Below, piece by piece: positions 673-45,400 of a DNA stretch of 64,000 nt (its first letter is position 1; every line of letters starts with the position of its first letter). Source of the DNA: Amphibalanus amphitrite. Its lineage: Eukaryota > Arthropoda > Thecostraca > Balanomorpha > Balanidae. The stretch is from contig NW_024881679.1 of NCBI RefSeq assembly GCF_019059575.1, positions 620,001 to 684,000 of the forward strand, read 5' to 3'. The position numbers and the translations under genes are program-made. The notes below the pieces were generated by a model that was not told where the DNA came from, made no database searches, and saw only the letters and a program-made list of their open reading frames with translations.

Positions 673-1654
673 ATGTCCCACGAAGAGGACGTGCCGGAGG
701 TGCAGCTGTTCCACGGCACCGTGGTCCACTCCACGGCCAGCAGTGCGGCCGACGTGCTGCCCGAGCACGTGCTGGTGGTGCGCCGCGGCCGGGTGGAGCG
801 GCTGGTGCCGGCGCGCCAGCTGTCCGACCAGCTGCAGCGGCTCGGGGGCACCGCCGAGGACGTGGTGCACCTGGAAGCCGACCAGCTGCTGCTGCCCGGG
901 CTGGTGGACGCCCACATACACCCGTGCCAGTACCCGAACGCCGGCCTGGCGCTCGACCTGCCGCTGCTCGAGTGGCTCCAGCGCTACACGTTCCCGCTGG
1001 AGGCGCGCTTCCGAGACGAGGAGTTCGCCGCTGGCGTGTACGAGACGGTGGTCGAGCGCACCCTGAGGAACGGCACCACGTGTGCTTCCTACTTTGCCTC
1101 GATCCATCGGCCGGCCACCGAGCGGCTGGCAGACATTTGCCGCCGGAGAGGACAGCGCGCCCTCGTCGGCAAGACGTGCATGGATATGAACTCGCCGGCC
1201 GACTACTGCGAGAATACCGACGAGAGTCTCCAGGAGACGGCGGCGTTTGTAGCCGGCCAGCTGCGGCGCCGGTGCTCCCTAGTGCGTCCCTCCATCACAC
1301 CACGGTTCGCCATCACCTGCAGCGAACGACTCCTGAACGGGCTCGGCAAGATCGCCAACCAGCACCAGTTGCACGTGCAGACGCACCTCAACGAGACGCT
1401 GCCGGAGAAGGCGCTGGTGGCCAAGCTGTTCCCGGCGGCGCACAGTTACACGGACGTGTACCAGCGTGCCGGGCTGCTCGGTCCCCGCACCGTGCTCGCC
1501 CACTGCCTGCACCACGACGAGGGCGAGCTGCAGATCATGGCCAACTCGGGCGCCGGCGTGGCGCACTGCGCCAACTCCAACAACTCGCTGCGCTCCGGCC
1601 TGTGTGACGTGCGCAAGCTGCACGAGGCCGGCGTCAGTGTCGGGCTGGGCACAG
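673..1654 (+). CDS. GDA: Guanine deaminase exon 1
   Basis: Encodes residues 1-327 plus one base of codon 328. It contains the HxH metal motif and the His ligands. The donor is GGCACAG|GTGAGA. Reading on past it meets an in-frame TAG at 1705-1707. Confidence 0.95.
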
Positions 1655-2888
1655 GTGAGATGGGAAATAAATATTGGACCTCGGCACAGGTGAGCGGAAA
1701 TTCATAGCGGGCCTTGGCACAGGTGAGTTGGATATAAGAACGATATATCTACACCTGTAGCTCACCTGTGGTAACAGGCAAATGGGAAATAAAGAATGGA
1801 CCTCAGCACACGCGAGTCCGATTTCAGAGCCGCCCTTGACTCAAGCAAGCAGGACTCAATGGGCATCGCACAGGTGAGAGGGCGACAGCGCGGTCCTTGC
1901 CATGGGTAAGCGAAACAGTAGCCCGCGGTACGTAGCCCACAATGGACCCACTCCACGCTGCAATAAAACCCCAAACTTAATCAACTGTGGTGCAATCACG
2001 GCTTTGAGCAGAAGCACGTTGGCAAGTGTGCATGCACATCTGTTCATTAGCCGCATTCATTCTCTTTACGTGTTTCTGTCGTCACTTGTTACATCACCGG
2101 TCATTGGTGATGTAGAGCAGCGTAATTATCCGATCATAATAGAGTGGTCAGCGCCCACTGCAATCAATCCCCGACTGATGGTGTAATTTACGAGCTGCCT
2201 GAGGGCTCCAGGCAGCAACCTCTGCTGTCTGTGTCGAGCATGTACCGGTGAAGACACTGCCACCCAGCAGACGGTGCCGATGTCGTCTGTCTGACCACGC
2301 TCAGTTGGTGACGGTGACAGTTTCAGCCGGTCAGTCGCCTGTCCTGACCCTTTCGCCGCACCCTGACAGTCCGTCTGGGCATTTGACTGAAACCGCCCAG
2401 CTGAACGTCTCGCTGCTGTTCGTCTAACCATCTGATCGTAACTGGGCCCACTTTCTGACCGCGCTCCTGCTCTCCGTTAAATAACACCTCGTCCACCGGC
2501 AGACATGTCTGGCGGCTACCACCCGTCGGTGCTGGACAGCGTCCGTGCCACGCTGCACACCTCTAACGTGCACGCAATCCACCGGGACGACTACGAGGCG
2601 CTCACCTTCCGAGACGCCTTCCGAATGGCCACGCTCGAGGGCGCCAGGGCCCTCGGACTCGACGACATCATCGGCAACTTCGAGCCGGGAAAGCAGTTCG
2701 ACGCGGTGGTGGCTCATGTGGGTCACGAGGAGTCAAACGTGGACCTGTTGACACCGCACTCACACGACGAGCTACTGCAGAAATTCGTCTACCTGGGAGA
2801 TAGTCGTGACATCTGTGCCGTCTACGTGGCGGGCCGTCAGGTGGTCTCCAATCCGACTCAGGAATGGAGCAAGAGCGGCGGCGCCTGA
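673..2888 (+). CDS. GDA: Guanine deaminase (guanine aminohydrolase), two coding exons
   Basis: This cytosolic zinc enzyme hydrolyses guanine to xanthine and ammonia in purine breakdown. The exons are 673-1654 and 2503-2888, joined in phase 1 (GGCACAG / ACATG), giving 455 residues, close to the 454 of the human enzyme. The ATG at 673 sits in a good context (gacaccATG). Motifs run in the order expected of the amidohydrolase family: PGLVDAHIHPCQY (metal-binding HxH, about residues 76-88), THLNE and AHCLHH (further metal ligands), CANSNNSLRSG, then GLGTD across the splice junction, with the metal-ligand Asp, followed by SGGY. The C-terminal part has FRMATLEGARALGLDD, IGNFEPGKQFDAVV and FVYLGD, typical of eukaryotic guanine deaminases. 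I see no frameshift or missing ligand. The intron contains tandem copies of the donor site. Confidence 0.96.
1655..2502 (+). other. Guanine deaminase intron 1
   Basis: An 848 bp GT-AG intron. Its first 230 bp hold three further copies of the (G/C)CACAG|GTGAG donor motif, with gt at 1690, 1723 and 1874, inside partly repeated sequence (tgggaaataaa...tggacctc at about 1660 and 1780). The acceptor is ccaccggcag|ac. Confidence 0.85.
2503..2888 (+). CDS. GDA: Guanine deaminase exon 2 (terminal)
   Basis: Encodes the last 128 residues, starting with the Asp of the GLGTD motif formed across the junction. It ends at TGA 2886-2888 after a Ser/Gly-rich tail. Confidence 0.95.
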
Positions 2889-42264: not shown

Positions 42265-42439
42265 TCACGTGCACTCGTGAACGTCCTCCCAGCGTTTGCA
42301 CGTTTTGCACTTGACGTAGCAGCACCAGACGTATTTGCACTGGCAGCGCTCGATGCGCTCCACTGTGAACGTGTTGTACGGCCTGCCGCAGCACATGGAC
42401 TTGCAGCCGTCGTGAGACGTCGACGAGGCGTTACATTGC
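42265..42439 (-). CDS. Wnt16: Wnt terminal exon
   Basis: 58 codons including TGA (42265-42267). Cysteine-rich C-terminal domain with CCGRPYNTFTVERIERC and WCCYVKCKTC. The acceptor ctctgtttcag|GCAATGT is repeated twice more upstream in transcription direction. Confidence 0.94.
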
Positions 42440-45400
42440 CTGAAACAGAGGGCATGCAGAGTTAGGAAGACTGCGAGAGGAGGCGTTACATTGCCTGAAA
42501 CAGAGCGGATGTTGTGTTAGAAGACTGCGAGAGAAGGCGTTACTTTGCCTGAAACAGAGGGGGGTGTTACGTCTGAGGAACGGTGGGGGAGGCACTGTTC
42601 TGCGCGGGTGCCAGGGATGAGGAGAAGTCAGGAAGCATACTATGCTAACGCTGTCACAGCCCTAGACACAATATCGCTTTGTGAAACGCTCACGTCACAC
42701 TATTTTGATTTAACTGCATGCACACGAGAAGCGCTCACGCACACACAGAGACACACGCAAATAGCAGTCAACCCCTACTCTGGGAGCGTTGATCGGAGCG
42801 GTGAGTCGCGCAGTGTAGCTCGCTTAGAAGTCCTGACTCAAAGGAGTTGGTACAAAAGTGCGACCTCCCTGCGCATTTTGCCCCTAATTGAGCTAGCGCC
42901 TCGCGAAAAAAGCGAACGTGTGCACGCCGTCACGAAGCGCAGCGATTGGTGCCCGATTTTAAGGTATCATGTCGGCCGGGGGCCTCCCGAGGTCAGGTCA
43001 AATATCAATAGGCAAGTCAGGTTTTGGAAAATAATCGGCTGAAATGTTCAACAACTTTTGAACTATTACTCCTCCAACCACTTTCAGCTGCGTCGAATGG
43101 TATTCTTTTTGCTTGAGAAAGGTCACCTTGGATGTTGGCCCCTGACGCTCTACCGTCGGGGTCTACCGGCTCTGCTGGTCTGCCGTCCGTCTGCACTCTG
43201 GATTTGTCTATCGTGTGGCCTGTCTATTGTCGCACGGTATATTTCGCTATATGCTACCTCAATATTGACTTGTATAAGTACTGCTCGCTTTGTCCGACCA
43301 GATCAATACGAGCGTCGGACAATATAAAAACCGCAGCATCGTGGCCCAGCTCCCCCGGTATTGATTATCATCACGCCAGCCTCGCTGTAACCTTTTCGTC
43401 CACCAATCGCATTGCTTCTCTTGTCGTTTGTCAGCCAATCATCGTGTTCCCCGTTTCGGCCACCGCCTAAAGAAGTGCGGACCAACGCCCAACTGTTTTG
43501 GTATATAAACTCTGTTCTGTCGCTCAATACATTCATTCTCTATCTGGCTGACCCACGCTTGTGAGCTCTCCGACAATGGTGGCAGCGGCGGTCGAGGGGA
43601 CTTGCGCCCCTCGCAACGGACTCCAGCCTCTACATCTGCACTGACACCGCAGACCGGAGGTTCGTCCGTGCTCCGATACGGTGCGTCACCCCTACGTCAC
43701 GTCATCGACTAGGGTGCTGACCAGTGACTACTCTGGAACCGTCATACTCTAGCGACACCGTATACAGTGTTCAGCTCTGCCCCGACAAGATAATCTGTCT
43801 TACGCAAGACCGAAGTCCAAAAACGAGCTGCATTAAACCTCAACGGAGCTCGCCGACAGCGCATGGCACACCAACCTGCTGCGATATCCTCAACCTCATG
43901 GAGGAAAAGCCACCACCACCAACATCAACAACAACGAAAATCGACGGAGTGCAAATCACAACGCTAAATTGAAGACAAATCTGATATTTCAAATTCAAGA
44001 TAACCGACAAGACCTATTACAAATGGCAGACTTTTGTTCTTTAATCTACGAAGTGCCAGTGACATCGTGCTTTGGAAATTGTGTTACAGTGGTTACAGTG
44101 CATCAAGATTATCCAGGCGATTAAATAGTTAAATACGTTTCGTTTCGTCCGTGATTGGAACCCATGTTGTCTAAAGTGGTACATAACGTACCCCACAATT
44201 ACCGGGAAATGGGCTACTACAGTGCTGTGTTTAATATTAATTTTGTTCACATCCCATGTCATTTTGGCAATCAGTCTTACAAGCGTTTTGTAAATCGTAT
44301 GAACACTTAAATACGTGGATATCATGGTCAATTCACTGAAAATCAATTGAATTGATATTCGGCCAGAGATGCCGAGGGCCAGAGATGCCCAGGAGCGGTC
44401 CCTGCCAGAGAGCAGAGGAGCCGCCCAACCGTAAGCTCCACGACCTTGACGGGAACGCTAAGCGTCCCGGCAATGGCTCTTTTCCTTTACAGTGTTATTC
44501 AACATATATGTCAAAGGACCATGAAGAACCATTCAAGCCACCGTGGCAGGTAGTAGGTGATATTGCCATGACACCTAATTACATGTTCATACCATTTTCA
44601 AATACGTTCATCTTAAAATGTATTACCCGTACATTTTACGTGCTGATTATTGTCATGCCTCCTGTCGTCGGCTCATAGGGAGGGTGACATGTGTCGCACG
44701 GTATATTTCGCTATATGCTACCTCAATATTGACTTGTATAAGTACTGCTCGCTTTGTCCGACCAGATCAATACGAGCGTCGGACAATATAAAAACCGCAG
44801 CATCGTGGCCCAGCTCCCCCGGTACCTATTGATTATCATCACGCCAGCCTCGCTGTAACCTTTTCGTCCACCAATCGCATTGCTTCTCTTGTCGTTTGTC
44901 AGCCAATCATCGTGTTCCCCGTTTCGGCCACCGCCTAAAGAAGTGCGGACCAACGCCCAACTGTTTTGGTATATAAACTCTGTTCTGTCGCTCAATACAT
45001 TCATTCTCTATCTGGCTGACCCACGCTTGTGAGCTCTCCGACACTATTGTGGTCTGACTGCCGTGTAGTATTACGGCTCTGGTGGTCTCTATCCGGGTCT
45101 GCCTGTTGTTATGGTCTGTCAACCGTTATGGTCTGTCGGCCGTGGTGGTCTCTATCCGGGTCTGTCGGCCGTGGTGGTCTGCCATCCGGGTCTGTCGGCT
45201 GTTATGGTCTGTCTGCCGTGTATTGTCAGCTCTGGTGGTCTCTATCCGGGTCTGTCTGCTGTTATGGTCTGTCTGCCGTGTATTCTGTCAGCTCCGGTGG
45301 TCTGCCATCCGGGTCTGTCGGCCGTGGTGGTCTCTATCCGGGTCTGTCTGCCGTGGTGGTCTGCCATCCGGGTCTGTCGGCACACACGTCGTCCACCGCT

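What the first reader, a model, noticed from the sequence alone, without database searches (positions are those of the whole stretch)
1643..42560. Splice junctions copied in short tandem arrays in three unrelated genes
Five exon-intron junctions in this one window have extra copies of themselves close by in the intron: the guanine deaminase exon 1 donor (4 copies), the UGGT exon 14 acceptor plus 64 exon bases (2), the UGGT exon 15 donor (3), the UGGT exon 21 donor with ~20 exon bases (2-3) and the Wnt last-exon acceptor (3). Periods are short (31-95 bp, with one outlying guanine deaminase copy 152 bp further on). One case would be an accident; five suggest a genome-wide process that favours duplication across exon edges, or selection for decoy or back-up splice sites. 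It may also be a route by which introns grow.
Basis: partly seen in the sequence, partly recalled or inferred. Interest (0 to 1): 0.72.

Follow-up and report, generated by a model that had tools for sequence, protein, structure and literature searches.

The report
Exon edges copied into neighbouring introns
In this animal-like genome several exon edges, splice signal included, have been copied head-to-tail into the intron next door; the same kind of structure has been described in lancelets, and it looks like ordinary short tandem duplication that happened to cross exon borders.

Summary
A 24-exon UGGT gene, a two-exon guanine deaminase gene and the last two exons of a Wnt gene give 52 junctions. 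Four carry clear tandem copies: the guanine deaminase exon 1 donor, UGGT exon 14 acceptor, UGGT exon 21 donor and Wnt last acceptor. The four plus a possible new one (UGGT exon 8 donor) score 12 or more, 5 of 52 against 0.16 expected.

A junction-favouring process is not shown. Other models gave P from 0.0000 to 0.22. Selection for decoys is not supported: use of the copies tested in guanine deaminase and UGGT truncates the protein, and some copies have lost the site.

The closest known kind is the lancelet 'mirage' (PMC3087553). I read this as a new member, species unidentified. The genome-wide test could not be run. One oddity: the UGGT exon 14 copy looks as if once under coding constraint (P 0.014).

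The parts
1648..1682 (+). Guanine deaminase exon 1 donor, authentic unit; junction 1654|1655
   Evidence: 673-1654 joined to 2503-2888 gives a 455-aa amidohydrolase
1683..1737 (+). Two copies of the donor unit (donors after 1689 and 1722)
1769..1854 (+). Second-order repeat of block 1646-1732, 71% identical, donor cores lost
1868..1882 (+). Outlying donor copy (donor after 1873)
25020..25124 (+). Upstream copy of the UGGT exon 14 acceptor with about 60 exon bases (copy AG ends at 25066, weak)
25127..25219 (+). Authentic UGGT exon 14 acceptor region; junction 25161|25162
25845..25874 (+). UGGT exon 15 donor, authentic unit; junction 25850|25851
25877..25928 (+). Two weak copies of the exon 15 donor core (donors after 25882 and 25923)
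32285..32334 (+). UGGT exon 21 donor, authentic unit with 25 exon bases; junction 32309|32310
32336..32404 (+). Copy (32336-32384, donor after 32360) and a 19-bp remnant
42422..42600 (-). Wnt last-exon acceptor array: authentic junction 42439|42440 and copies 55 and 109 bp further into the intron
22152..22171 (+). Possible remnant copy of the UGGT exon 8 donor (21923-21942), donor GT lost

Best explanation
These are boundary-spanning minisatellites of the kind called mirages in lancelets. Short stretches of DNA (about 30-95 bp) were duplicated head-to-tail by ordinary slippage or unequal exchange in introns rich in such arrays. Some of the duplicated stretches happened to cross an exon edge. 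The event is tolerated because the outermost donor or acceptor still adjoins an intact exon, so the extra copies fall inside the intron. There they drift, can be duplicated again (as in guanine deaminase), and lengthen the intron. Shown here: the tandem copies, their position, their uneven decay, and the abundance of arrays in these introns. Inferred: the slippage or exchange mechanism, near-neutral tolerance, and that normal splicing ignores the copies.
For: Copies are tandem and lie on the intron side, at donors and acceptors. Arrays are common away from junctions too: 5 of 9 intron arrays touch no junction (12 of 114 hits had been dropped there as low complexity), and arrays cover 9.7% of all intron bases, 4.2% in UGGT plus guanine deaminase. 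The rate at junctions is within about 1.6 to 2.8 times the intron background. Some copies have lost the splice signal. Use of a copy truncates the protein: UGGT ends after 986 aa (exon 14 copy), 1070 (both exon 15 copies) or 1409 (exon 21 copy) of 1512; guanine deaminase after 421, 344 and 344 of 455. The same architecture is described in lancelet globin, Adh3, troponin C and PGBD5 genes, reported there not to disturb splicing (PMC3087553 section 16; PMC3902484 passage).
Against: The event count leans towards junctions: 3-5 of 8-14 arrays against 1.2-2.2 expected, P 0.010 at the most favourable threshold; P 0.0000 to 0.07 in the placement model. Strong donor-like sites are otherwise rare in UGGT introns: only 3 score 10 or more, and two sites in the arrays (after 25882 and 32360) score that high. 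The exon 14 copy has too few amino-acid-changing differences for a freely drifting copy (4 against 8.3 expected, P 0.014).
Confidence: 0.8

Rival explanations
1. A mutational process tied to exon edges (for example breaks or slippage linked to transcription, splicing or local composition) makes tandem duplications preferentially across junctions, so that introns grow from their ends.
For: 4 of 9 intron arrays at junctions against 1.4 expected (P 0.037); 5 of 10 at threshold 31 (P 0.010); placement models with at most 10-50 exon bases P 0.0000-0.0051. Arrays at both donors and acceptors in three genes.
Against: The window was brought up because the pattern was seen in it.
Confidence: 0.12
2. 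The copies are kept by selection as decoy or back-up splice sites, or as extra U1 binding sites next to the exon.
For: Three guanine deaminase copies keep a donor as strong as most of the 25 authentic ones (11.8, 14.0, 12.8); exon 15 and exon 21 copies score 9.6-12.3; Wnt copies score 10.0 and 10.9 against 10.1 for the authentic site. With the copy at 1868 included, the guanine deaminase core changed at 8 of 59 columns against 22 of 81 elsewhere (P 0.062).
Against: Use of the copies computed gives premature stops; the Wnt offsets 55 and 109 are not multiples of three. Without the 1868 copy the core contrast is 8 of 48 against 21 of 77 (P 0.20), and two of those four copies have damaged cores. 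The exon 14 copy's acceptor scores 3.8, below all 27 authentic sites.
Confidence: 0.05
3. Some copies are assembly artefacts, two divergent haplotypes joined in one contig.
For: The exon 14 copies differ mostly at synonymous sites, as alleles of a coding sequence would.
Against: 8 synonymous differences in 63 nt is more than I would expect between alleles (judgement, not tested). The guanine deaminase and Wnt arrays have three or more copies, and the former a second-order structure, which joining two haplotypes does not simply give.
Confidence: 0.04

Closest known systems
[quoted passage not shown] PMC3902484)
   Same: Tandem units span an exon-intron border; 5' and 3' borders both affected; copies lie in the intron; many but not all keep splice signals; unit lengths overlap (10-160 bp there, about 31-95 here).
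   Different: Here in guanine deaminase, UGGT and Wnt genes of an unidentified species; copies are about 71-89% identical, against 81-100% reported for the BflGb6 units. No data here on length polymorphism, somatic instability or splicing.
[quoted passage not shown] Drosophila near intron pairs, PMC2891723)
   Same: Tandem duplication that includes splice signals; in the potato case the duplicated stretch crosses an intron-exon boundary.
   Different: Here each array lies at one end of an existing intron; no new intron is seen, only added length.
Ordinary intronic minisatellites
   Same: The same introns hold five arrays that touch no junction.
   Different: Four arrays include 10 or more exon bases and the splice site.

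Membership tests
Mirage minisatellites | Tandem repeat units that include both exon and intron sequence across a splice junction | tested here: met
   four junctions clearly, the exon 15 donor weakly
Mirage minisatellites | Both 5' and 3' exon boundaries can be affected | tested here: met
   donors in guanine deaminase and UGGT exon 21, acceptors in UGGT exon 14 and Wnt
Mirage minisatellites | Many but not all copies keep AG/GT splice signals | tested here: met
   scores; lost in the guanine deaminase second block
Mirage minisatellites | Normal splicing is not disturbed | not testable with these tools
   no RNA data; use of copies would truncate the protein
Mirage minisatellites | Copy number varies between haplotypes or cells | not testable with these tools
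   one sequence only
Mirage minisatellites | Reported from lancelets | tested here: inconclusive
   species of the window not identified
[quoted passage not shown]
   each junction array touches only one end of its intron (array lists against the gene model)

The most novel reading that the evidence does not exclude
In this lineage tandem duplication preferentially crosses exon edges and feeds a conveyor: new junction copies arise at the exon, older ones are pushed inwards and decay, so introns grow from their ends at a rate that could be measured genome-wide; some copies, such as the one before UGGT exon 14, may pass through a phase of use as coding sequence.
Probability: 0.12. Interest if true: 0.65.

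Novelty: new member of a known kind. Interest (0 to 1): 0.33.

Why it matters
Boundary-spanning repeats are described, in the papers that my searches turned up, in lancelets. Here they occur at 4 of 52 junctions of one window, in three genes of a species I could not identify. Such repeats are raw material for intron lengthening, shifted splice sites and intron gain, and they complicate gene prediction. A simple genome-wide count would tell whether exon edges are hot spots or merely bystanders.

Tried and rejected
A first gapped self-alignment with loose scoring ran across unrelated sequence and microsatellites; it showed no excess at junctions (for example 4 of 50 against 13.1 expected from all introns at score 30, or 3.1 from UGGT introns; 2 of 52 junctions were masked there) but I set it aside as inflated. 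The ungapped test gave 5 of 52 at score 16 (P 0.038; five thresholds P 0.016-0.107). One of those hits, the Wnt penultimate donor, I read as an effect of the nearby (TC)n run (it aligns over only 7 bp and scores 10) and dropped it, which leaves 51 junctions.

The placement test depends on how many exon bases an array may include. I prefer the unit-based test but report both. In some searches low-complexity hits were dropped before arrays were merged (12 of 114), and an array at 2858-2966 at the end of the guanine deaminase gene was not counted because it lies outside introns. The twofold detectability factor is my assumption.

Decoy selection: tested by splice-site scores, frame and core conservation; not supported. 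In one search I tested the third exon 15 site two bases off; one search repeats it at the right place with the same stop. Alternative exon for the exon 14 copy: considered; use of its acceptor alone shifts the frame. No tRNA was found with the bacterial-code scan. A literature search for barnacle genomes was made on a guess about the species and led nowhere. PMC2812944 was seen in a search listing only.
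Full report
What is in the window. The sequence is animal-like (inference from its genes), 50.7% G+C. I built a UGGT gene model on the + strand: 24 coding exons, 18233-38654, 1512 aa, an open frame throughout, with AG and GT at intron ends imposed by the script; its best matches among solved structures are UDP-glucose-glycoprotein glucosyltransferases (10 sequences). On the - strand lie the last two exons of a Wnt gene (Pfam wnt). 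Together they give 25 donors and 27 acceptors, 52 junctions. The species was not identified.

The observation. All five copied junctions are real places in the sequence; details are in the observation check. Four are strong. The UGGT exon 15 donor is weak. The guanine deaminase array has a second level: the block 1646-1732 recurs at 1769-1854 at 71% identity, so at least two rounds of duplication occurred. The Wnt copies lie 55 and 109 bases into the intron from the true acceptor, and all three carry the same TTTCAG; by eye the true site and the nearer copy also have a CTAAC branch-like motif.

Chance. Junction copies are not chance similarity of splice consensus: when each junction is compared with the flanks of other junctions of the same type (1302 pairs), a score of 12 or more is reached by 0.31%, 0.16 expected in 52, against 5 found (the four strong cases and the exon 8 donor); at 10.5, which admits the exon 15 donor, 6 are found against 0.28. 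Tandem arrays themselves are far above chance: 14 in the introns at threshold 28, against 0, 1, 0 and 0 in four shuffles of the whole window.

Are exon edges favoured? By position, 4 of 51 junctions are spanned at score 16 against 1.8 expected from intron positions (P 0.11); over five thresholds P runs from 0.06 to 0.22. Before one hit was dropped as a microsatellite artefact, P was 0.016-0.107. By event, 9 arrays overlap introns at threshold 34 and 4 include a junction; if units fall at random over introns and edges, 1.4 are expected (P 0.037). Over seven thresholds P runs from 0.010 to 0.096 for all genes and from 0.010 to 0.14 for UGGT plus guanine deaminase. Two things weaken these numbers. 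Second, the window came up because someone saw the pattern in it. I conclude that a modest excess is possible and not shown.

Selection for decoys? In each case computed, use of a copy truncates the protein: UGGT ends after 986 aa with the exon 14 copy, after 1070 with either exon 15 copy and after 1409 with the exon 21 copy, guanine deaminase after 421, 344 and 344; the Wnt offsets would shift the frame. Several copies keep strong sites, and such strong sites are otherwise rare in UGGT introns (3 donors of score 10 or more in all; two of the array sites score that high), which is the best point for this rival. But copies start perfect and need only be young, and others have lost the site (guanine deaminase second block; UGGT exon 14 copy, 3.8 against a lowest authentic score of 5.7). 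In four aligned guanine deaminase copies the core changed at 8 of 48 columns against 21 of 77 elsewhere (P 0.20); adding the copy at 1868, of which only 15 bases align, makes it 8 of 59 against 22 of 81 (P 0.062).

An unexplained detail. Over 63 bases the exon 14 copy and exon differ at 12 sites, 8 synonymous and 4 not. A simulation in which the exon is constrained and the copy free gives 8.3 non-synonymous on average, P(4 or fewer) = 0.014. Of 7 third positions that differ, the copy has G or C in 6 and the exon in 2, though the gene's third positions are 80% G+C. The copy thus looks as if it had been coding for part of its life, or came from another coding copy. It is one test among several and may be chance.

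Known kind. Tandem repeats spanning exon-intron boundaries were named mirages in lancelets: globin BflGb6 and BflGb9, and earlier Adh3; the authors say that RT-PCR results suggest regular splicing despite copies with AG/GT signals, note length instability, and propose mirages as a route to intron gain (PMC3087553, section 16 read in full). A later paper adds PGBD5 and cites troponin C (PMC3902484, passage). The original Adh3 and troponin C papers were not seen. Intron gain from a tandem duplication crossing an intron-exon boundary is described in potato (PMC4974935, abstract), and tandem duplication of exonic proto-splice sites in Drosophila (PMC2891723, abstract and passages). Searches aimed at boundary-spanning minisatellites (three papers listed in each) gave only the two lancelet papers for this architecture; other wordings (listings only beyond the papers named) gave the intron-gain papers. 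That does not show that no other case is in print. The present case meets the architectural features of mirages; splicing neutrality and instability could not be tested.

Limits. Gene models rest on open frames, splice consensus and protein similarity, not on RNA.

Noticed in passing
43228-45043: Two direct repeats of about 350 bp (stretches of 133 and 217 bp 100% identical, a small indel between them) flank about 1.1 kb; repeat ends read TG...CA with CTAT on both outer sides: a young LTR-type element in the last Wnt intron, beside a tandem array. Its interior was not searched for genes.
   Followed up: partly
13627-17414: Minus-strand open frames of 623 and 389 aa that read like the reverse transcriptase and endonuclease of a non-LTR retrotransposon; named from recall, no family search was run on them.
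   Followed up: no
27647-27730: In the 3.4-kb UGGT intron 17 an 84-base stretch bounded by AG and GT could be a cassette exon; by eye it reads in frame between exons 17 and 18.
   Followed up: partly
25067-25130: The exon 14 copy differs from the exon mainly at synonymous sites and has more G/C-ending codons than the exon itself at the sites that differ.
   Followed up: partly
45044-45471, 48068-48330, 48414-48994: Large minisatellite arrays (periods about 29-59) inside the 8.2-kb last Wnt intron, not at junctions.
   Followed up: no
22669-22828: A near-perfect inverted repeat in UGGT intron 9: 75 of 80 bases match between the arms; possibly a small inverted-repeat element.
   Followed up: partly
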